DNA from: Methanocalculus alkaliphilus
GTDB taxonomy: Archaea; Halobacteriota; Methanomicrobia; Methanomicrobiales; Methanocorpusculaceae
DNA: 47,779 bases
Assembly (NCBI RefSeq): GCF_024170505.1
Contig: NZ_JALJYG010000015.1
Coordinates: forward strand, 1-47,779
Reading direction: 5' to 3'
In this document: in pieces, positions 5,395 through 39,789 of the stretch
Position numbering within the stretch: the stretch's first letter is position 1
How the letters are laid out: the number at the start of each line of letters is the position of its first letter
The notes under the pieces: model-generated
Databases searched by the model: none
The model's input: the letters and a program-made list of their open reading frames with translations, nothing else
Told to the model about the DNA's origin: nothing
Position numbers and translations under genes: made by a program

Positions 5395-5907
5395 TTACCC
5401 CTCTTCATCAGGAAAGAGTGCTATGATCCCCTCTTCACCCATCCTGAAGAGGACGAGTTCGGCACAGGTACGGAGGAAGGGATCATCCCCGTCGGCCGCT
5501 TCCGAGAGGGCAGGAATTGCCGGCTCACCAATACGGCAGAGTGCAAGTGCGATGGCTCCACGGACATTGACATCATCATCGGCAAGATGCCTGATGAGAT
5601 GCGGGATCCCCGCCTCACCAAGCGATGCAAGGGATCCGGTCAGGTACCGGCGGAGATCCGGATCCCCGCTCAAACGAATCGCCTCGATCACCGGATCAAC
5701 AGAAGCAACGCCCATCCTGGCGATGGCGCGGGCAAGGTACCACCGCATCGTCGCCTGTGACTCCTCCAACGCTGCGATAATTTCGGGGATGGCTGACGGG
5801 CCGATCGCGGCAAGCGCCAGCTCCGCCTCTCTTCGTGCCTCGAGATCCGGTTCTCCGACCGCTCTGAATAATGCATATATCTCTTCTTTACCAGCCATGT
5901 GTCTCAC
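5395..5907 (-). CDS. HEAT-repeat protein (small, soluble)
   Basis: This 170-residue protein is built of consecutive helical repeats of about 30 residues (for example [50 protein letters not shown]). The pattern matches HEAT/PBS-lyase-type repeats, which usually act as protein-protein scaffolds. There is no signal peptide or membrane segment. Translation may start at the second Met (MAGKEE, 5898). It overlaps the end of the upstream MscS gene by about 20 bases and lies 5 bases before polC, so it belongs to the same transcription string. No enzymatic function is suggested. Confidence 0.85.
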
Positions 5908-6841
5908 CTGGTTTTGTCTTTTCCTCTTTTTCTATCGGCTGAAAGGGAATCTCCCGGATTGGGGGTGGTTCCTTAACACTCTTCATATCAGCCTTCAGGA
6001 TATTATTAAACCAGACCTCCTGCTGGGGGAATGGTATCTGGATGCCGTTCTTCTCAAGTTCAACCTTGAGTCTCCAGAGAAGTTCGGTCCGGAGCCCCCA
6101 CCAGTAGAGGGAGGGAGCCCAGATCTTGACGACGATATTGACGCTTGAGCTGTCAAGTTTGTCAACATAGACAGACGGACCCGGACTTTTTAAGGCATAC
6201 GGCTGTTTATCGATCATATCCCTGATGATCGAGATCGCTTTTCCCGCATCATCCCGATATCGTATGCCGATGGTATATTCGAACCGGCGGGCAGGATGGA
6301 TGACAAGATTTGTGATATCACTGGTGAAGAGCCTGGAATTAGGGATCCGGACATAGATGCCATCAAATGTCCGGACGATCGTCGACATAATCTGAATATT
6401 CTGGACGGTCGCCGTCATGGAGCCGATCGAGATATTATCACCGATCTTGATCGGCCGCTCGAACATAAGAAATAGTCCGGATACCAGGTTTGAGACGATA
6501 TTCTGGGTCGCAAACGCCAGGGCAAGTGCGATGATTCCTCCGGCGACGAAGAGACCCGAGAGATCAAAGTGCAGGTATGGCAGTATGACAAGGAAGGTCG
6601 CCAGATACAGAAGGTATGTCACGATCGTCGTCATAAAGTCGAGATCCGACTTTGGAACCCTGTCCCCGAAGCTCCGCTTCAGCTGGATCCTGACGACACG
6701 GATCAGGGTGAGTGCAAATATAAAGATGATGAGAACCCAGACGAGATCGAGCGGTGTCGTCTCTCCAATGACGGGGGTTGTCAGAAGGTGCAGAATTGTC
6801 CCTTCAGACCGAAAGATCGTCTCCGGATCAGAGATATCCAT
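5888..6841 (-). CDS. mscS: MscS-family small-conductance mechanosensitive channel
   Basis: This 317-residue membrane protein has hydrophobic segments at about residues 28-50, 75-95 and 100-130. The pore-lining helix is the Gly/Ala-rich GGIIALALAFATQNIVSNLVSG. A soluble beta/alpha-beta vestibule domain follows (GDNISIGSMTATVQNI, then IRIPNSRL), as in MscS channels that release solutes on hypo-osmotic shock. Its ATG directly follows the stop codon of the upstream DUF432-type gene (TAG-ATG), and its end overlaps the HEAT gene. The three are therefore tightly coupled and probably serve the same envelope-stress or osmotic function. Confidence 0.94.
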   Translation of the reverse strand: MDISDPETIFRSEGTILHLLTTPVIGETTPLDLVWVLIIFIFALTLIRVVRIQLKRSFGDRVPKSDLDFMTTIVTYLLYLATFLVILPYLHFDLSGLFVAGGIIALALAFATQNIVSNLVSGLFLMFERPIKIGDNISIGSMTATVQNIQIMSTIVRTFDGIYVRIPNSRLFTSDITNLVIHPARRFEYTIGIRYRDDAGKAISIIRDMIDKQPYALKSPGPSVYVDKLDSSSVNIVVKIWAPSLYWWGLRTELLWRLKVELEKNGIQIPFPQQEVWFNNILKADMKSVKEPPPIREIPFQPIEKEEKTKPGETHGW

Positions 6842-26194: not shown

Positions 26195-27361
26195 ATGATG
26201 CGGGGAATTATCCCTCTTGCAATTCTCATCCTTCTCATTCCTTCTGCAGCAGGGTTTGTCGTCCTGGATTCAGATGGAATTGTGGATGGGTATCTCAGCC
26301 CGGGAGATGAAGAGACTATTATTGTCACCCTCGGCTTTCCCGGACTGGAGCTCCTCTCCTTCCCTTCCGGAGATATCCTTGAGCTCCGAACCGATCTCGC
26401 GAATCCGAAATGGAGCGTCGTCCTGATAAGAGGGGAGGCGGAGAGCACGCTCAGGCAGTCAGGGAGAGCACGTGAGGTGATAACAGGATGGGAACTCTCA
26501 TACCCGGTAGCTGAGGATATCAGCCTCTCTATCAGCCTCAGGGGAACGGTCCCTGACACAGGTTCGGATACGCCCCTCTCACTCATCAGGGTGCGGCAGC
26601 TTGATGGATCCCATCAGCTCCGCGGAGAGAATGAATACGAAGTCTCACAGCTCGTCATCCCATCAGGGAGCATTCCCCCCGGCGACAGACCGGATCCGGT
26701 CATCATTGCACCACCGCCACCGGATCTCTCCGCATTCACCCCATCATCCCGGTTAACCACTCCGGCAGGGGAGATGACACCCGGGGAAACGGTCACGCTC
26801 AGAACCCATCTCTCCTTCGATCGCCTCCAGACAACATCATTTCCATGGACAGATTCCCTCCGTCTCAGATCAGCTCTCCTTGATCCGCAATGGGAGGTGA
26901 CCCTTTTCCGGGATGGTGGAGAGATGCCATCATCCACACGGAGGAGCCCGTACTACACAATACCCGGCTTTGAGCTCTCCTATCCGCAGAGGGAGAATGT
27001 CGGCCTCAGGGTTGCCGTCACCGGAGAGGTTCCCGAGGTGGCAGGCTTCCCGCTCCTTGAGATCAGACAGTGTGGCCCAAACGGGTATGCACGTGAGGGG
27101 GCGATCTTTATCCACCCCGCGACCATCGCAGATCCAAGAGAGGTGCCGGTGCCGACACCCACCATGACCGTATCACCTACTCCGGTTCCTACAATCGAAC
27201 CGGAACCGCCCCATACCCCAAACCCCCTCCCGGTACCTGAGGATACCGGAGGGATCTATCCTGATCTCATCTCATTTGAAAAGATTGGAGCCCTCATCGA
27301 CTCCTTCATCGAATTTCTCATACCACAAATACAGAGGATCATCTCAGGAGTAGGGGGATAG
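26195..27361 (+). CDS. Exported protein with two tandem beta-domains and Pro/Thr-rich linker
   Basis: This 388-residue protein starts with a signal peptide (MMRGIIPLAILILLIPSAAG). Residues about 33-155 and 193-312 are clearly duplicated: each holds LSPGDEETI / MTPGETVTL, then L.LRT/S.L.(N/D)P.W.V.L.R., then GWELSYP / GFELSYP, then a closing ...(I)R(V)RQ. The predicted fold is Ig-like and extracellular. A PTPTMTVSPTPVPT linker follows, and the C-terminal segment (about 359-385, ISFEKIGALIDSFIEFLIPQIQRII) is amphipathic and may attach to a membrane or partner. No named family is recognised. It lies 4 bases before nrdJ, but a functional link is not obvious. Confidence 0.8.
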   Translation: MMRGIIPLAILILLIPSAAGFVVLDSDGIVDGYLSPGDEETIIVTLGFPGLELLSFPSGDILELRTDLANPKWSVVLIRGEAESTLRQSGRAREVITGWELSYPVAEDISLSISLRGTVPDTGSDTPLSLIRVRQLDGSHQLRGENEYEVSQLVIPSGSIPPGDRPDPVIIAPPPPDLSAFTPSSRLTTPAGEMTPGETVTLRTHLSFDRLQTTSFPWTDSLRLRSALLDPQWEVTLFRDGGEMPSSTRRSPYYTIPGFELSYPQRENVGLRVAVTGEVPEVAGFPLLEIRQCGPNGYAREGAIFIHPATIADPREVPVPTPTMTVSPTPVPTIEPEPPHTPNPLPVPEDTGGIYPDLISFEKIGALIDSFIEFLIPQIQRIISGVGG

Positions 27362-32310: not shown

Positions 32311-32892
32311 TCACACCACCCTTGACGTCGTCGAGAGCTCGATCCCATCCCCGGTGAGGATGAAGGGGACGGTCCGATCAGGGATCCGCATCCCCCGGTA
32401 CTTCATCACCTGGAGCCGGCGTTCGATCTGGGACTGGTGGACCTCTGTTCTGAGATAGATGACGATATCTGCCTGCCTGAAGATCAGGATCTCTTCATAC
32501 GGGGTATGCAGGCCTTCGTACAGCGTACAGAGGAGGCATCCCCCTTCCGACCGGAACGATTCTGTGGCGATGGTGAGGAGACGGATCGCCTGGGAGATGC
32601 CCCGGTCAAGGATCACCGAGGAGAGCGAGTCAAGGACTGCGGCAGAACCCCTGATATCATGGGCGATATCCTCGACCGAGAGGCCTGCAGCCACAAGTGC
32701 CGGGCCGACGGGCTCCTCATCAAGGGTCAGATACACCCCGTCTGCCGCTGCTGCAAACCGGGCCGCAAGTATCTCAATCCCGGAGAGGGCGGATCCATAG
32801 ACGATGATCCGGGCACCTGCCCGGTATCCGCCACCGAGGACCGGATCAAGCCCCGGTACCCCGCTTGTTCTCATCCCATGCTCTTCCATCAT
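32311..32892 (-). CDS. KaiC/RecA-like protein with a degenerate Walker A
   Basis: This 193-residue protein has the core layout of archaeal KaiC-like ATPases: TSGVPGLDPVLGGGYRAGARIIVYG at the start, then VYLTLDEEP, AAVLDSLSSVI (Walker B-like) and a C-terminal VMKYRGMRIPDRTVPFIL (usual KxR.. form). The P-loop reads GSALSGIEI instead of GxxGxGKT, so the catalytic Lys is missing and nucleotide hydrolysis is doubtful. It lies 6 bases after ecfT and ends the ligase-ECF string. It may be a regulator or chaperone rather than an enzyme. Confidence 0.8.
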   Translation of the reverse strand: MMEEHGMRTSGVPGLDPVLGGGYRAGARIIVYGSALSGIEILAARFAAAADGVYLTLDEEPVGPALVAAGLSVEDIAHDIRGSAAVLDSLSSVILDRGISQAIRLLTIATESFRSEGGCLLCTLYEGLHTPYEEILIFRQADIVIYLRTEVHQSQIERRLQVMKYRGMRIPDRTVPFILTGDGIELSTTSRVV

Positions 32893-32898
32893 CGTATC

Positions 32899-33687
32899 CT
32901 ACATCAGGGGTATGGCAACCACCATAACGGCAAGAAGCGACACCGCAGTGATAACAGCCCCGTCGAGACGGCCAAAGGTGATCGGATCCGGTTCAGCCTT
33001 CCCGCGTCTGTACCCACGCATATCGATCGTCATTCCTAGGGTATCAGCCTTTCCAAGAGAGTTAAAGATGAGGGGGAGGATGACCGGCCGGAGACCCCGG
33101 ACCTTCCCGATGAACCCGTCTCCGGGGGAGTACCCGCGTGCAAGCTGTGCCTCGCTTATCCGGATCCCCTCCCTCTGGAGCGTTGGAATGAAGCGGAGCG
33201 CGATGAGGAACATCAGTGTATAATCAATCGGCATCCGAAGCTGGCGAAGTGTCATGACCAGCTCCCCCGGCCTGGTCGAGATGACCAGAAGCTGGAATGC
33301 AAAGAGCATCACAGAGAACCGGAGTGCAAGGATCGTCCCAAAGAGGAGTGCCCCGCTCGTCACCGGAAGGGCACCACCGATGAGTGGAACGGCAGCCGGG
33401 ATGAGCGTCAGGATCACCTCGCCCCCCTGCATCGTCAGGACGGTGAAGAGGACAAGCATCCCACCAAGGATGAGGAGGAGCGGGATCTGTTCGGTGAGCC
33501 CGCGGGAGAGCCCCCCTGCCCATGCAGCAAGATAGACCGCAATGAGAAGACCGGAGAGGATGAGAAGATCTCCGGTCATGACGGCAAGCGCAACGAGGAT
33601 AACCGTGAATACAAGCTTTGTCAGGGGATGAATCCGGTGGAAGATGCCGGCTCCCGGGATATACTGCATAATCTCCTGCATCGTCAT
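32899..33687 (-). CDS. ECF transporter transmembrane component EcfT (CbiQ family)
   Basis: This 262-residue membrane protein has about five to six hydrophobic helices and the cytoplasmic coupling motifs of EcfT: the Arg-containing EAQLARGYSP (first A-R-G motif) and TIDMRGYRRG (second). The N-terminal FHRIHPLTKLVFTV is also typical. EcfT links the ATPases to the substrate-binding S component. It overlaps the end of the ATPase gene by 4 bases (ATGA type), which indicates coupled translation. Confidence 0.93.
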   Translation of the reverse strand: MTMQEIMQYIPGAGIFHRIHPLTKLVFTVILVALAVMTGDLLILSGLLIAVYLAAWAGGLSRGLTEQIPLLLILGGMLVLFTVLTMQGGEVILTLIPAAVPLIGGALPVTSGALLFGTILALRFSVMLFAFQLLVISTRPGELVMTLRQLRMPIDYTLMFLIALRFIPTLQREGIRISEAQLARGYSPGDGFIGKVRGLRPVILPLIFNSLGKADTLGMTIDMRGYRRGKAEPDPITFGRLDGAVITAVSLLAVMVVAIPLM

Positions 33688-35084
33688 GCCTCCTCGATCG
33701 ATACGATCCGCCCGCTGTTCATCCTGATGACCCGGTCCGCATAGGTTGTCGCGAGTCCGGGATTATGGGTGATCATCACGATCCCATGGCCGGCGTCTGC
33801 AAGACGCCCCAGGATATCCATAATCTGGAGCGATTCTGCAGGATCAAGCCCGGTTGTCGGTTCATCCAGGACGAAGACATCCTGGCCCATCGCGATGACG
33901 CAGGCGAGGGCGAGCCGCTGCCGTTCGCCCCTGCTGAGATGGCGTGGATTGACCTCCCCTTTTCCTGCAAGGCCGACCTCGGCGAGTACCGTTTCGATAC
34001 ATCCGGTATCCTTTCCGATATTCTTCAGGCCGAAGGCGACCTCCTTTTGAACAGTATCCTCAAAGAGCATCGTATCCGGATTCTGGAAGACGAGTCCGGT
34101 ATGCCGGGAGAGGAGAGAGACCGACTGGTCATGGCACCTCGTCCCGGAGACGAGGAGCGATCCTTCGGTCGGGCGGAGAAGGCCATTCATATGCTTCACA
34201 AGTGTCGTCTTGCCGGAGCCGTTCTCCCCGATGATCGCGATGATCTCACCACGGCTGAGTGTCAGATTCACACCATCAACAGCCCGGAGATCTCCGTAGC
34301 AATGAACAAGATTCTCCATCTCGATGAGGCGATCCCCGTTCGCCACTGATGTGCGTCTCCGGGCCGGCCGGAGTGACTCCTGTATCCGGCGTGAGACCTC
34401 TTGTGCCGATCCCGATGCGGTGATCCGCCCATCCTCAAGGAGGATACAGGCATCGGCATATGACGCGGCTTCATCGATCATATGCTCAACAAGGATGATC
34501 GTCTTCCCTTCATCAGCAAGCCGGCGGAGGAGGGAGAAGACGACACCCCTGGCGGCTTCATCAAGCTCTGATGTCGCCTCATCGAGGATCAGGATATCGG
34601 TTCCAAGTGCCAGTGTCGCTGCAAGTGCCGCCTTCTGCTTCTGGCCACCAGAGAGGGTATAGGGGGGTCGATCAACAAGGTCCCGGATCTCAAGAAGACC
34701 GAGGATCCGGTCCAGCTCCTCTTCCGTCTGACCCCGGGAGAAGCCCCGGTTCCGGAGACTGGTTGAGATCTCCTCACCGACCGTTGTGAAGATCAGCTGG
34801 GCATCGGCGTCATCAAAGACCATCGATACATCATAATAGAGCTCTTCGACGCCGTCATACGCCATAATATCCTTTCCTTTCACGGCAATGGAACCCTCAA
34901 GCCTCCCTGAGTAGAGATGGGAGAGGATCCCTGCCATCGCCCGGCAGAGGGTGGTCTTTCCTGACCCTGATGGGCCGGTGATGATCAGCATCGATCCCGG
35001 GGAGAGGGAGAGGGAGATCTCCCTGAGAACCGGTCTGTCCCCTCTGAGGTATGTGTAACTGAGATTCTGAATATCAATAGGCAT
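33684..35084 (-). CDS. ECF transporter ATPase, two ABC domains fused (EcfA-EcfA')
   Basis: This 466-residue protein contains two complete ABC domains. The first has Walker A GPSGSGKTTL, signature LSGGQKQKAALA and Walker B ILILDEATSELD. The second has Walker A GENGSGKTTL, signature LSRGERQRLALA and Walker B VFVLDEPTTGLD. The halves join at about residue 245. It provides both nucleotide-binding subunits for the importer, so no separate EcfA' gene is needed. It is 3 bases from the S component and overlaps ecfT. Confidence 0.95.
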   Translation of the reverse strand: MPIDIQNLSYTYLRGDRPVLREISLSLSPGSMLIITGPSGSGKTTLCRAMAGILSHLYSGRLEGSIAVKGKDIMAYDGVEELYYDVSMVFDDADAQLIFTTVGEEISTSLRNRGFSRGQTEEELDRILGLLEIRDLVDRPPYTLSGGQKQKAALAATLALGTDILILDEATSELDEAARGVVFSLLRRLADEGKTIILVEHMIDEAASYADACILLEDGRITASGSAQEVSRRIQESLRPARRRTSVANGDRLIEMENLVHCYGDLRAVDGVNLTLSRGEIIAIIGENGSGKTTLVKHMNGLLRPTEGSLLVSGTRCHDQSVSLLSRHTGLVFQNPDTMLFEDTVQKEVAFGLKNIGKDTGCIETVLAEVGLAGKGEVNPRHLSRGERQRLALACVIAMGQDVFVLDEPTTGLDPAESLQIMDILGRLADAGHGIVMITHNPGLATTYADRVIRMNSGRIVSIEEA

Positions 35085-35087
35085 CGT

Positions 35088-35612
35088 TCATCTCTCCAGG
35101 ATTCGTGAGGCAGACGGGTAGAGCATCTGGACGATGATTCCATTGACGACAGCGGTGATGAGAACAATCGGGACGATTGCCATGACAAAGCCGGTCAGGG
35201 TTACTGCCTTTGCAAGCATTCCCGGTGCTGCCAGGAGGAGGAGGACAACAACCCCCACGAAGGTAAATCCCGATGCAAGCGTCGCAATGGCGGTTGAGAT
35301 GCCGGGTGCCCCCACCCTGATCCGGTCCTTCACCAGCATGAAGACGAGGATGCAGACGACGGCACCGACGGGCTCGGAGATGAGGTTTGCCGGTGGGAAG
35401 ATCGAATGGCTGATCAGGGCAGATACCAGGCCGGCGATCGCCCCGATTCCGAGGGCCTCATTCACCTTCGGTACAACAAGGAGGATCGCGAGCGAATAAA
35501 ACGCTATGACAAGGTTGGCGACGATTGGTCCCGGAATGACGAGGGACATAAACCGGACGATGGCCCCGGCTGCAAGCAGGATGCCGACGATTGCTATATC
35601 TCTGGATTTCAT
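35088..35612 (-). CDS. ECF transporter S (substrate-binding) component
   Basis: This 174-residue protein is almost entirely hydrophobic, with about six helices (MKSRDIAIVGILLAAGAIVRF, NLVIAFYSLAILLVV, IGAIAGLVSALI, PVGAVVCILVFML and others). This matches the size and topology of ECF S components. The substrate cannot be read from sequence; no BioY, ThiT or RibU signature is evident. Its start overlaps the acyl-CoA ligase stop by 4 bases (ATGA), which hints that the cargo might be a carboxylic acid the ligase activates. That link is inference. Confidence 0.87.
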   Translation of the reverse strand: MKSRDIAIVGILLAAGAIVRFMSLVIPGPIVANLVIAFYSLAILLVVPKVNEALGIGAIAGLVSALISHSIFPPANLISEPVGAVVCILVFMLVKDRIRVGAPGISTAIATLASGFTFVGVVVLLLLAAPGMLAKAVTLTGFVMAIVPIVLITAVVNGIIVQMLYPSASRILER

Positions 35613-37141
35613 GGTGTCTGCCTTATTTTCTGTGAATAGTTTTCCCTGAGGCTCTTTCTCATCAGCTTCCAGCCATTGACCCGTGGAAGGTGATCAACGA
35701 TCTCCACCTCACGGGGAACCTTGTACCCTGCCAGATGCCGGCGGCAGTAGGTGATGATCTCCTCGATCCGGAGGGGGCGTTTCAGAATGACCGCCGCAAC
35801 CGGGATCTCGCCCCGCCGTGGATCGGGAACACCGAATATTGCCGCATCTGCGATATCGGGGTGGCGGAGGAGGACATTTTCCACCTCTGTGGGGTAGATC
35901 TTCCAGCCGGACATGATGATCATATCCTTCTTCCGGTCGGTGATCGAGAGCATTCCGTTCTCATCCAGGTACCCGATATCGCCGGTGAGGAACCAGCCGG
36001 ACGGGAGGAAGGCAGCCGCCGTCTCCTCCGGCATCCCATAATAGCCGAGGGCGACGGAGGGGCCGCGAAGGGCGATCTCCCCCTCCATACCTTCCGGGAG
36101 GACCACTGATGGATCCCCGGTATCGACGATCCGGACCTCTGAATAACCGGCAGGATGGCCGACCGAGAGGAACCGGTCTGCGAGCGGATAGTCGTCTGCA
36201 CGGATGGCGGTTCCTGTGCCGACGACGATCGTCTCGGAGAGGCCGTAGGCGTTGATGATCGGGATGGAAAACCGCTCATGAAAGGGTTTCCAGATATCAG
36301 GATGGAGCGGACCGCCACCTGAGATGATCTCCCGGACAGATGCAAGCAGGTCTTCGGTTCCCGGCGGGGAGGTGAGGAGGGTATGGATCACCGGAGGCAT
36401 CCCGGCAAGGACCGTCACCCGGTACTCCTCAGTCAGCCGGAGATATGCCTCCGGATCAAAGCGTTCCATCACAACGAAGCGTGCACCGGCCTTCAGGGCG
36501 GCGATCCCCCAGGAGATGCCGACATGGCCCATCGGGTAGATGCCAAGATAGATATCATCCGGACGGAGGCCAAGGACCTCGGCCTCGGCATCGAGTGCCG
36601 CCATCCATCCCCCCTGGGTGAGCATCGCACCCTTCGGCCGTCCGGTTGTTCCTGAGGTGTACTGAATGTGACAGAGATCTGATCCCTGGCAGTTCGCAGG
36701 TTCAATCCAGATCCGATCATCGGGGAGAAGTCTCCAGGGGACAGTTCCTTCCGGAGCATCGCCCCCTGCGACGATGACGGTGACATCCGGGATGGACGAT
36801 GCCATCTCCGAGCCCTCAGGATCGGTGATGATCACCTTGCTCCCGGAATCAGATACAGCGTAGGCAAGTTCATCCCTCGTTGCGACCCGGTTTGCCGGAA
36901 CGGCAACAGCACCGATCCGCCACGCGGCAAAGTATGCGATGAGATAGCCCGCAGAGCTCTCAAGGCAGATGGTGATCCGCTCCCCTTTTGAAACGCCATG
37001 GGAGAGGAGGAGCGACCCGAGAGTGCAGGTTGCATCAAGGAGATCCTGCATCGTGTAGGATTCACCCGTTGATGGAAGAATCAAGGCTGGGCCGCTTGAT
37101 CGTGCTGCACCGATATCAAGAAATGATGTGACGTTTGGCAT
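35609..37141 (-). CDS. AMP-dependent acyl-CoA synthetase/ligase
   Basis: The protein is 510 residues from MPNVTSFLDIGAARS, with a CTGGAG ribosome site just upstream and a TATA box about 40 bases away. The adenylate-forming signatures are YTSGTTGRPKGAMLT (A3), INAYGLSETIVVGTG (A5), GWFLTGDIGYLDENGMLSITDRKKDMI (A7/A8) and a C-terminal VPREVEIVDHLPRVNGWKLMRKSL with the catalytic Lys. It activates a carboxylic acid with ATP and joins it to CoA. The substrate is unknown. It begins a coupled string with the ECF transporter, which suggests a scavenged acid. Confidence 0.93.
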   Translation of the reverse strand: MPNVTSFLDIGAARSSGPALILPSTGESYTMQDLLDATCTLGSLLLSHGVSKGERITICLESSAGYLIAYFAAWRIGAVAVPANRVATRDELAYAVSDSGSKVIITDPEGSEMASSIPDVTVIVAGGDAPEGTVPWRLLPDDRIWIEPANCQGSDLCHIQYTSGTTGRPKGAMLTQGGWMAALDAEAEVLGLRPDDIYLGIYPMGHVGISWGIAALKAGARFVVMERFDPEAYLRLTEEYRVTVLAGMPPVIHTLLTSPPGTEDLLASVREIISGGGPLHPDIWKPFHERFSIPIINAYGLSETIVVGTGTAIRADDYPLADRFLSVGHPAGYSEVRIVDTGDPSVVLPEGMEGEIALRGPSVALGYYGMPEETAAAFLPSGWFLTGDIGYLDENGMLSITDRKKDMIIMSGWKIYPTEVENVLLRHPDIADAAIFGVPDPRRGEIPVAAVILKRPLRIEEIITYCRRHLAGYKVPREVEIVDHLPRVNGWKLMRKSLRENYSQKIRQTP

Positions 37142-37187: not shown

Positions 37188-37212
37188 TACAATAGCCATT
37201 TAAAGTGACCGA

Positions 37213-38319
37213 TTATATGCCGGATCTGGCAATGGTTCTTCGTTCTGCGAGACCATATCCGCAGATGACGCGGATCGTCTCAGGAAAGGCCGCATCACAA
37301 AGACGATCACCGGTATCAATATGGAGAAGAGGTGTCCCACGGAGTTTTTCCGGTGTGGCAACGACGATGATATTCTCCGGTCCTATCCGGGAGATGGCTG
37401 CGGGTGTGATCACCTGCGTCCCACGGCCGAGGATGAACCCCTGGGATCCGATCGGGCTGATGATGAGGCGTGCATCCGGGTGGATCTCAAGGAATGAAAG
37501 GAGGGAACGGGCGTCAAGGTCACCTGCGAAGCGGGTACCGCCGGCATAGGCATCAATGCCCAGGAGGGTCTTTGGGAGCCCCATCTCCTCTGCTATCGCT
37601 TCTGTCGTCGATCCCGCACCAAGAATGAAGGGCCGGCCCGACGAGAGGACAGCTGCCATGAAACGGGCGATCTCTCTCCTCTGCCGCTCTTCATCTCCCT
37701 GCGTTCCATATGTCTCTTTCGCATGCTGGACAAAGCCGCTCCGGTAGGGAATCCGGGCAATACCATAGAGGCGGGTGCTGAGCCGGCCGGAACGGTACGC
37801 CTCCTCATCGACATCAAGGACCTCGGCATCGCGGAGCGGGAGCGAGCCGATATCCCGGATGAGGGGGGCGGCGGCCTGCGGATCGGTTGCAAAGACCGCG
37901 GAGTACATCTTGACCCCGGCCGGGATACCAAGGAGAGGGGTGCTGGTGCCGACTGCGGCAAGGACATCCCGTGCGGTGCCGTCACCACCGACGAAGAGGA
38001 TCAGGCCGGCTCCCGCATCTGCGTATGCCCTGCATGCCGCCACGGTATCCTTGGCAGTCGTTGTGGTATTGCATTCATAGAGGACCGTATACCGGGAGAT
38101 CCCGGCATTCCGGAGGGCATCCTCTCCCATCGGGCCTGATGCGGTCAGAAACTCTATCGGTTCATTTACAAGAAGGGAGAGGGTCTCTTCCGCACGAAGG
38201 AGTGAGCGGGGCTCAGCCCCCCGCTTCAATGCCTCTTCAGAGAGGCCGTCTGTCCCCTTCAGCCCGACGGTCCCCCCAAGGCCGGCAATGGGATTGATGA
38301 CAAGTCCGATCCTCTGCAT
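37213..38319 (-). CDS. AcoX-like ATP-NAD kinase family protein (COG3199)
   Basis: The protein is 368 residues from [16 protein letters not shown], with the start overlapping the trpB2 stop as TGATG; the longer open frame into trpB is a shadow. It carries the NAD-kinase/diacylglycerol-kinase superfamily motifs VINPIAGLGG, FVGGDGTARDVLAAV (GGDG) and GIPAGVKMYSAVFA. A C-terminal region of the COG3199 type follows. It probably phosphorylates a nucleotide-like or lipid-like substrate, but the true substrate is unknown. It is translationally coupled to trpB2. Confidence 0.88.
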   Translation of the reverse strand: MQRIGLVINPIAGLGGTVGLKGTDGLSEEALKRGAEPRSLLRAEETLSLLVNEPIEFLTASGPMGEDALRNAGISRYTVLYECNTTTTAKDTVAACRAYADAGAGLILFVGGDGTARDVLAAVGTSTPLLGIPAGVKMYSAVFATDPQAAAPLIRDIGSLPLRDAEVLDVDEEAYRSGRLSTRLYGIARIPYRSGFVQHAKETYGTQGDEERQRREIARFMAAVLSSGRPFILGAGSTTEAIAEEMGLPKTLLGIDAYAGGTRFAGDLDARSLLSFLEIHPDARLIISPIGSQGFILGRGTQVITPAAISRIGPENIIVVATPEKLRGTPLLHIDTGDRLCDAAFPETIRVICGYGLAERRTIARSGI

Positions 38320-39677
38320 CACCGGACCTTCGGGAGATGGGAGAGGGACTCTTTGATCAGGTCGTCGGGGCATTCATAATCGATGATCTCGCCTGCATGG
38401 TAGGCATCATATGCCGTCATGTCAAAGTGGCCATGGCCGGAGTTGCAGAAGAGGATCGTCTTCTCTTCACCGGTCTTCCTGCATTCAAGCGCAACATCAA
38501 TCGCCCCTTTGACCGCATGGGCAGCCTCGGGTGCGACGATGATCCCCTCGGCCCGGGCGAAGATCTCAGCTGCGGCGAAGACCTCATTCTGGAAGTACGC
38601 CCTCGGAGTGACGATCCCGTCATGGACGAGGCGGGAGACGATCGGGGAGTCGCCATGGTACCGCAGCCCTCCGGAATGGAGTGATGGCGGGACGAACTCA
38701 TGGCCGAGGGTGTACATCTTCATCATCGGTGTCAGGCCGGCAACATCGCCATAATCATATTCGTACAGCCCTTTGGTCATCGTCGGGCAGGCGGCAGGCT
38801 CGACGCCGATGATCTCCGTCCCTTTCGCCTTCCCGGTCAGGATATCTCCTGCAAATGGAAACGCAATCCCTGCGAAGTTCGATCCGCCGCCGACACTACC
38901 GATGACGACATCCGGGTAAGAATCAACCGTCGCAAGCTGCTCCCGTGCCTCAAGGCCGATCACCGTCTGGTGGAGGCAGACATGGTTTAAGACCGAGCCA
39001 AGGGCGTAATGGGTGTTTGCATTGGTCGCGGCATCCTCGACGGCTTCGGAGATGGCAATGCCCAGGCTCCCGGTCGTCTCGGGATCTTTTTCAAGGACCG
39101 CCCGCCCCGCTGCGGTTTTGGTGCTCGGGCTCGGGATACATTCTGCACCCCAGACATGCATCATGGATTTCCGGTATGGTTTGTGGGCATAGCTGGATCT
39201 GACCATGTAGATGGTGCACTCCAGATCAAAGATGTTCGTTGCAAAGGCGAGAGCAGACCCCCACTGGCCGGCCCCGGTCTCTGTCGCGATCCGCTCAATC
39301 CCCTCCTTCATATTGTAGTATGCCTGGGGAATGGCGGTATTTGGCTTATGGCTCCCTGCCGGGCTGACCCCTTCGTACTTATAGTAGATCTTCGCCGGGG
39401 TCTTGAGGTACTTCTCAAGCCGATGTGCACGATAGAGCGGGGCGGGCCTCCAGAGTTTGAGGATCTCCCGGACCTCATCAGGGACCGGGATTTCCCGCTG
39501 CTGGGTCATCTCCTGGAGGATGAGTTCCTTTGGAAAGATCGGGGCGAGATCATCAGGGATAACAGGCTTGCCGGTCGCCGGGTGGAGCGGAGGATCAAGC
39601 GGGGTCGGGAGATCAGCCTGGATATTATACCAGGTTCTGGGGATGCTCTCCTCATCAAGATATATTTTGGTCTGCAT
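38319..39677 (-). CDS. trpB: Tryptophan synthase beta chain, TrpB2 type
   Basis: The protein is 452 residues from [25 protein letters not shown] lies about 10 bases upstream and a TATA box about 45 bases away. The PLP Lys is in GSHKPNTA, the phosphate loop is GGGSNFAG, and the catalytic-site [10 protein letters not shown] matches the longer TrpB2 branch. TrpB2 proteins make tryptophan from indole and serine, often without TrpA. No other trp genes are nearby, so it may be a salvage or stand-alone enzyme. It overlaps the AcoX-like gene. Confidence 0.94.
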
Positions 39678-39719
39678 CTTACAAAAACCTCCATTCAAAT
39701 ACAAAGTTGTGGTATAATG

Positions 39720-39731
39720 AATATATATGTA
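39720..39731 (-). promoter_or_regulatory. TATA box for trpB2
   Basis: Minus-strand ACATATATATTC lies about 43-55 bases upstream of the start at 39677. It is consistent with a short leader containing the strong GGAGGT ribosome site at about 39687-39692. Confidence 0.6.
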
Positions 39732-39789
39732 CATCTAAATGATAAATGTATCCTTCAACCCGGCGATCAGATCTGATGGAAATATGGTA

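What the first reader, a model, noticed from the sequence alone, without database searches (positions are those of the whole stretch)
32311..37141. Acyl-CoA ligase coupled to a complete ECF importer and a KaiC-like protein
Five genes run in one direction with ATGA overlaps or gaps of 3-6 bases: ligase, S component, fused A-A', T component, KaiC-like. Group-specific ECF importers are normally named by their S component, but here the S component matches none of the vitamin types I recognise. A CoA ligase translated first suggests uptake and activation of a carboxylic acid by vectorial coupling, a combination I do not know as described.
Basis: partly seen in the sequence, partly recalled or inferred. 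Interest (0 to 1): 0.5.

Follow-up and report, generated by a model that had tools for sequence, protein, structure and literature searches.

The report
Aromatic importer paired with CoA ligase
In a group of methane-making archaea, a gene set for an ATP-driven nutrient importer of the tryptophan-transporter type has repeatedly settled next to the gene of an enzyme that attaches coenzyme A to acids, which suggests that these microbes pull in and immediately lock up an aromatic building block.

Summary
The five genes are real, on the minus strand, at the stated coordinates and spacing, in a Methanocalculus-like methanogen. The S component is not a vitamin type: the window copy matches no Pfam or NCBIfam model, but relatives pass the curated cut-off of TrpP, the tryptophan transporter, and the predicted fold is that of an S component. 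The ligase link is more than chance. Within Methanomicrobiales S almost never occurs without the ligase (49 of 50 genomes with S in the phylum sample). The importer cassette sits beside the ligase in three different layouts in separate lineages, and the whole unit apparently passed to gut Methanimicrococcus. In one Methanofastidiosum bin a ligase of another family, phenylacetate type, takes the same operon position. Against a universal partnership: Methanosarcina has the importer without this ligase. The KaiC-like gene is a bystander: kept where both others are lost, missing where both are kept. Best reading: a dedicated TrpP-type importer functionally linked to CoA activation, most likely of an aromatic acid used for aromatic amino acids. 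The substrate is not shown; plain tryptophan import is the main rival.

The parts
35609..37141 (-). AMP-forming acyl/aryl-CoA ligase (510 aa; possible earlier TTG start at 37192)
   Evidence: PF00501 and PF13193; A3 motif YTSGTTG and a lysine in the A10 region; single orthologue in 51 of 61 relatives
35088..35612 (-). ECF S component, TrpP-like (174 aa, six helices)
   Evidence: AlphaFold model pLDDT 87.7; closest solved folds are S components, PanT 6zg3_C Z 17.6, rmsd 2.8 over 172 residues; relatives pass PF17099 TrpP
33684..35084 (-). fused ECF ATPases A-A' (466 aa)
   Evidence: TIGR04520 358 bits in the N half, TIGR04521 346.2 bits in the C half, both over cut-off
32899..33687 (-). ECF T component (CbiQ/EcfT family, 262 aa)
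   Evidence: PF02361 101.9 bits
32311..32892 (-). short KaiC-like protein, Walker A lysine missing; judged a bystander of the ancestral locus
   Evidence: PF06745 47.2 bits; degenerate in 31 of 31 homologues; present in 5 genomes that lack both S and ligase, absent in all 25 genomes of genus g2 searched
37213..38373 (-). NAD-kinase-like protein directly upstream of the ligase; likely start at 38319 (neighbour, probably not part of the unit)
   Evidence: PF01513 71.5 bits, PF20143 46.7 bits; 71-base gap to the ligase ATG
38319..39734 (-). TrpB-like (TrpB2) enzyme, upstream neighbour in Methanocalculus
   Evidence: NF009057 726.2 bits, TIGR01415 624.5 bits, both over cut-off

Best explanation
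The four genes ligase, S, A-A' and T form a dedicated (group I type) ECF importer of TrpP-like specificity that works together with a CoA ligase. The S component binds a scarce aromatic compound outside, and the A-A'-T module drives its release inside by ATP hydrolysis. The ligase turns the imported carboxylic acid into its CoA thioester, which keeps it in the cell. The thioester could be fed to the indolepyruvate-type oxidoreductase (IOR), which every relative searched matches, and so to an aromatic amino acid. Shown here: gene content, family by profile, fold, co-occurrence, repeated adjacency, shared transfer. Inferred: that the ligase acts on the imported compound, that the compound is aromatic, and the IOR step. 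The KaiC-like protein is not part of it.
For: S family profile TrpP: 13 of 27 aligned members match PF17099 at E up to 1, best 8.3e-13; 7 of 10 in a second set, overlapping the first, are over the cut-off, among them the ligase-linked Methanoregula (46.3 bits) and Methanimicrococcus (27.9 bits, cut-off 27.2) copies. TrpP of Bacillus is the known tryptophan importer (PMC13170310, passages). Co-occurrence: in 61 relatives both 43, S only 0, ligase only 8, neither 10; in 294 genomes of the phylum sample S in 58, ligase in 51, both in 49. Adjacency in three layouts: ligase before S, ligase after T (Methanoregula), and divergent (G042); sister lineages have the ligase unlinked; at least 6 changes of linkage on the ligase tree. 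Methanimicrococcus groups with Methanocorpusculum in the ligase tree (100/100) and the S tree (100), with the same fused S-A-A'; M. blatticola has lost trpABDFGE (PMC9723798, passage) and host-associated Methanocorpusculum have reduced tryptophan synthesis (PMC10035134, passage). In Ca. Methanofastidiosum a PaaK-like ligase (TIGR02155 428 bits) ends 2 bases before S.
Against: All 45 relatives of at least 90% completeness already carry two PaaK-type ligases, and all match IOR alpha, so a further ligase for the same aryl acids is not obviously needed. Outside the order S occurs without the ligase: 5 Methanosarcina-family and 3 other genomes, and G236 inside the order. G002 and G036 keep the ligase without S. 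The PaaK-like score is below the family cut-off (646) and comes from a single bin with two contigs. Loss of IGPS does not go with S beyond chance (11 of 12 against 27 of 33, p = 0.65). No ligand or activity was measured.
Confidence: 0.4

Rival explanations
1. The importer takes up L-tryptophan (or another aromatic amino acid) itself, as Bacillus TrpP does. The ligase belongs to a parallel scavenging route for aromatic acids, or acts on a breakdown product, and the two genes are neighbours because both serve aromatic amino acid supply.
For: Family profile TrpP; TrpP known as tryptophan importer (PMC13170310, passages); S without the ligase in Methanosarcina and three further genomes outside the order; TrpB2 upstream of the ligase in Methanocalculus; tryptophan pathway loss in Methanimicrococcus (PMC9723798, passage).
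Against: An amino acid is not the expected substrate of a ligase with an acyl-CoA-ligase type A4 region (recalled family knowledge); within the order the importer is almost always accompanied by the ligase, which a plain tryptophan importer would not need.
Confidence: 0.35
2. The imported compound is a non-aromatic acid, such as a branched-chain or medium-chain fatty acid that these methanogens need as a growth factor, and the TrpP resemblance reflects only the fold.
For: The closest NCBIfam model of the ligase is a long-chain acyl-CoA ligase subfamily (PRK06187, 382.6 bits, below the cut-off of 476), and the closest solved chain is named fatty-acyl-CoA synthase; the window S copy itself has no TrpP match.
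Against: Full-length TrpP matches in many relatives; a phenylacetate-type ligase in the same position in Methanofastidiosum; among the five best solved relatives are feruloyl-CoA synthetase and two 4-coumarate-CoA ligases.
Confidence: 0.12
3. The neighbourhood is fortuitous: the ECF cassette happens to have landed at the AspRS-MetE-KaiC-ligase locus, and co-occurrence only reflects shared descent in one order.
For: KaiC-like and ligase are neighbours across most of the order without the cassette; in most genera the ligase is unlinked; S is absent from G002 although ligase and KaiC-like stay adjacent.
Against: Three different layouts beside the ligase in separate lineages, transfer of the unit to another order, and joint absence of both in five of six genomes of family f3 and in G052. 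A rough binomial estimate (20 relocations, 4 slots of 2000 genes, all assumed) gives about 9e-6 for three or more hits.
Confidence: 0.13

Closest known systems
TrpP (PF17099), tryptophan transporter of Bacillus subtilis and relatives
   Same: Nearly full-length profile match above the cut-off in several members of this S family; aromatic nutrient theme.
   Different: The window copy itself has no match; here S has its own fused A-A' and T genes beside it and, in part of the family, is fused to A-A'; a CoA ligase neighbour is not mentioned in the passages on Bacillus TrpP that I saw.
Group I ECF transporters with dedicated modules
   Same: S, A-A' and T in one operon; predicted S-component fold.
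   Different: Coupled to a CoA ligase; helix-1 motif is G-x-x-x-A (G in 27 of 27, A in 26 of 27) and not A-x-x-x-A (PMC11109136 section 10).
Phenylacetate-CoA ligase plus IOR route for aryl acids in methanogens
   Same: CoA activation of an acid followed by reductive carboxylation is the proposed use; mentioned for methanogens (PMC6737245 passage; PMC4162585 passages on Methanococcus maripaludis).
   Different: The window ligase is of the FadD/4-coumarate-ligase type, not PaaK, and comes with an importer; the PaaK pair is present separately.
Vectorial acylation (FadL/FadD fatty acid uptake; recalled)
   Same: Uptake made one-way by CoA activation.
   Different: ECF-type primary transporter instead of an outer-membrane channel; archaeon; substrate unknown.

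Membership tests
ECF transporter (complete) | Two ECF-type ATPases (A and A') | tested here: met
   TIGR04520 358 bits (cut-off 315) and TIGR04521 346.2 bits (cut-off 330) in the two halves
ECF transporter (complete) | T component | tested here: met
   PF02361 101.9 bits, cut-off 25
ECF transporter (complete) | S component: six-helix fold | tested here: met
   Model with six helices, pLDDT 87.7; the 13 best VIA rows are S components, metal-type ones included, Z 17.6 to 11.8. Foldseek alone gave no hit at E up to 0.001
ECF transporter (complete) | A-x-x-x-A motif in helix 1 | tested here: inconclusive
   G10-x-x-x-A14 instead: G in 27 of 27, A in 26 of 27; motif from PMC11109136 section 10
TrpP (PF17099) | Profile match over the curated cut-off | tested here: inconclusive
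   Window copy: no match at E up to 0.1 or 1. Relatives: 7 of 10 over the cut-off, 3 of 10 no match; 13 of 27 match at E up to 1
TrpP (PF17099) | Transports tryptophan | not testable with these tools
   No ligand data
AMP-forming acyl-CoA ligase (ANL superfamily) | AMP-binding domain and C-terminal domain with core motifs and catalytic lysine | tested here: met
   PF00501 259.9 bits, PF13193 74.6 bits; GTTG of the A3 motif and the lysine of the A10 region in the 43 rows listed, though with tryptophan in place of the usual glycine before it
Characterised CoA-ligase equivalogs (PaaK, 4-coumarate ligase, o-succinylbenzoate ligase and others) | Score over an NCBIfam cut-off | tested here: not met
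   Best 382.6 bits against a cut-off of 476 (PRK06187); none of the 25 models listed (of 110 matched) is over its cut-off
KaiC clock protein | Walker A P-loop | tested here: not met
   No GK[ST] in 31 of 31 homologues; 193 aa, 43.9 bits against a cut-off of 408 for the KaiC model

The most novel reading that the evidence does not exclude
An ECF importer for an aromatic carboxylic acid whose transport cycle is completed by a dedicated CoA ligase: ATP-driven vectorial activation of indole- or phenylacetate-like compounds for amino acid synthesis in methanogens, in part with S, A and A' as one covalent polypeptide, so that S cannot leave the module as the dissociation model of ECF transport requires.
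Probability: 0.25. Interest if true: 0.7.

Novelty: new variant of a known kind. Interest (0 to 1): 0.45.

Why it matters
ECF importers are known mainly for vitamins and metals. A TrpP-type ECF importer tied to a CoA ligase would extend them to acids that are activated on entry, and would explain how methanogens that have lost aromatic amino acid synthesis, among them gut species, obtain the precursors. The in-frame S-A-A' fusions in Methanocorpusculum and other Methanomicrobiales are a natural test case for whether S must dissociate from the module during transport.

Tried and rejected
Rejected: a five-gene unit. The KaiC-like gene is kept in five genomes without S and ligase (G034, G044, G049, G052, G059) and absent from all 25 genomes of genus g2, 21 of which have the ligase.

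Rejected: my first guess that the conserved genes beside S in family f2 were an IOR-PaaK-ACT cluster; they are a CitMHS transporter, a Usp protein and an unmatched protein.

Led nowhere: IGPS loss as a sign of tryptophan import (p = 0.65). Mapping of 4-coumarate ligase pocket residues by eye on the alignment gave no decision (pocket positions recalled, not from a call). TrpP relatives on plasmids: no match. A second Methanofastidiosum-group genome with the PaaK-S operon: 1 of 115 genomes of that phylum has S, the same bin. Foldseek alone gave no hit at E up to 0.001.

Literature: the listings of searches in an open-licence library showed no title or abstract on an ECF importer paired with a CoA ligase; most subscription papers are not held, nor is Rodionov 2009. 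I read passages only, plus section 10 of PMC11109136.

Rows dropped before counts: G052's 33% ligase hit counted as absent; in the fusion count 24 of 129 loci could not be assessed and are not in the 105; nine duplicate S rows and two duplicate ligase rows were removed before trees, and S copies without a single matched stretch of 150 residues were not in the S tree.
Full report
WHAT IS THERE. The finding is confirmed in every particular that can be read from sequence. On the minus strand from 37141 to 32311 lie an AMP-forming CoA ligase, a six-helix membrane protein, two fused ABC ATPases, a CbiQ/EcfT-type protein and a short KaiC-like protein, with junctions of -4, +3, -4 and +6 bases. The names I use for other G genomes rest on the same kind of match.

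THE S COMPONENT. The window copy has no Pfam or NCBIfam match. Its family does: 13 of 27 aligned members match TrpP, PF17099, at E up to 1 with a best of 8.3e-13, and in a second set of 10, partly the same members, 7 are over the curated cut-off across nearly the full profile and 3 have no match. The AlphaFold model has six helices with pLDDT 87.7. The closest solved chains by VIA-align are S components, first PanT (6zg3_C, Z 17.6, rmsd 2.8 over 172 residues); Foldseek gave probability 1.00 for the same chain but an E-value of 0.24. Membership of TrpP is thus likely for the family and not proven for this copy. TrpP is described as the known tryptophan importer of Bacillus subtilis (PMC13170310, passages).

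THE LIGASE LINK. Among 61 relatives both genes occur in 43, S alone in 0, the ligase alone in 8, neither in 10; five of the eight ligase-only genomes (G021, G023, G024, G028, G032) are drafts under 85% complete. Outside the own family the table is 21, 0, 1, 6. These genomes are related, so the Fisher values overstate the case. In 294 genomes of the phylum S occurs in 58 and the ligase in 51, all of the latter in the order; both in 49; ligase alone in G002 and G036; S alone in G236 and in eight genomes outside the order. So S needs no such ligase outside Methanomicrobiales.

ANCESTRAL LOCUS AND REPEATED ADJACENCY. In most of the order the ligase sits next to the KaiC-like gene in a stretch with AspRS, a MetE-like gene and CDC48, and the importer cassette is elsewhere. 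The cassette is beside the ligase as ligase-S-A-A'-T in Methanocalculus, Methanocorpusculum and G039; as S-A-A'-T-ligase-KaiC in two Methanoregula bins; and divergently in G042. In one search, 15 of 80 named loci have the ligase orthologue in the held flank; some flanks are short. On the ligase tree (40 rows, 20 linked) linkage changes at least six times. G002, in the window's genus, has KaiC-like and ligase side by side and no S. The ligase of G039 groups with family f4 (83/67, weak), its S with family f6 (99), so there the cassette was probably acquired. A rough chance estimate under assumed numbers is about 9e-6 for three independent landings; it is an illustration, not a test.

TRANSFER OF THE UNIT. 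Two Methanimicrococcus loci carry the ligase and a fused S-A-A' followed by T; in L113 the ligase frame as held is broken between two open frames, so it may be damaged or misread there. They group with Methanocorpusculum in the ligase tree (100/100) and in the S tree (100), although Methanimicrococcus is a Methanosarcinales member. M. blatticola has lost trpABDFGE (PMC9723798, passage), most intestinal Methanosarcinales lack aromatic amino acid synthesis (PMC11362671, passage), and host-associated Methanocorpusculum have reduced tryptophan synthesis (PMC10035134, passage). In our relatives, however, IGPS loss does not go with S beyond chance.

A SECOND KIND OF LIGASE. In the Ca. Methanofastidiosum bin, on two contigs, a PaaK-like protein (TIGR02155, 428 bits for the complete copy, cut-off 646) ends two bases before S, which is followed by A (and on the other contig A, A', T). 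On one contig an IOR alpha gene lies 3 kb away on the other strand, with a CbiM/Q/O-like set between (the Cbi names are my reading of the translations). Only this one bin of 115 genomes of its phylum has S.

MECHANISM PROPOSED. Import by S with A-A'-T, trapping by CoA, use by IOR. IOR alpha is matched in 61 of 61 relatives, over the cut-off in 54. Assimilation of phenylacetate or indoleacetate by reductive carboxylation in methanogens is in print (PMC6737245, passage; PMC4162585, passages). Against it: two PaaK genes are in all 45 relatives of at least 90% completeness, including those without the window ligase, so the window ligase must serve another acid or another situation. The substrate is open.

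THE KAIC-LIKE GENE. It is found in 16 of 17 genera, all but Methanocorpusculum (g2), including G034, G044, G049, G052 and G059, which lack S and ligase; G054, a 77% complete draft, has no match. It has no Walker A lysine in 31 of 31 homologues. It is a neighbour at the ancestral locus and not part of the importer system.

FUSIONS. S is fused in frame to A-A' in 24 of 105 loci that could be assessed: Methanocorpusculum, Methanimicrococcus and several other Methanomicrobiales. I saw no description of such fusions in the listings; the library is incomplete.

VERDICT. A real, evolutionarily supported partnership of a TrpP-like ECF importer and a CoA ligase; a new variant of a known kind; substrate and coupling untested.

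Noticed in passing
L042, L045, L046, L047, L113, L115 and others: S component fused in frame to A-A' in 24 of 105 assessable loci, which would stop S from leaving the module.
   Followed up: partly
L035:8274-9263, L036:9084-10076, L042:10546-10971: A histone-deacetylase-like gene (PF00850) lies just upstream of S in Methanoculleus, and a GNAT gene just after T in L042; this recalls the AcuA/AcuC control of acyl-CoA synthetases by acetylation (recalled).
   Followed up: no
window:35609-37141: In all 43 ligase rows listed a tryptophan, not the usual glycine, precedes the A10 lysine.
   Followed up: no
L083, L091, L101, L102, L105, L158: In Methanosarcina another acyl-CoA synthetase (31-36% identical; PRK12583 type in L105) lies within about 5 kb downstream of T on the opposite strand.
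   Followed up: no
L046, L048, L050 and others of family f2: An extra S paralogue precedes the fused S-A-A' in several family f2 genomes, next to a CitMHS transporter and a Usp gene.
   Followed up: no
window:38319-39734 and 37213-38373: TrpB2 and an NAD-kinase-like gene stand directly upstream of the ligase in Methanocalculus, also in G002, which lacks the importer.
   Followed up: partly
window:42443-43618, 26195-27361; L117:4140-5636, 5626-6369: Long open frames without any Pfam match at E up to 0.001.
   Followed up: no
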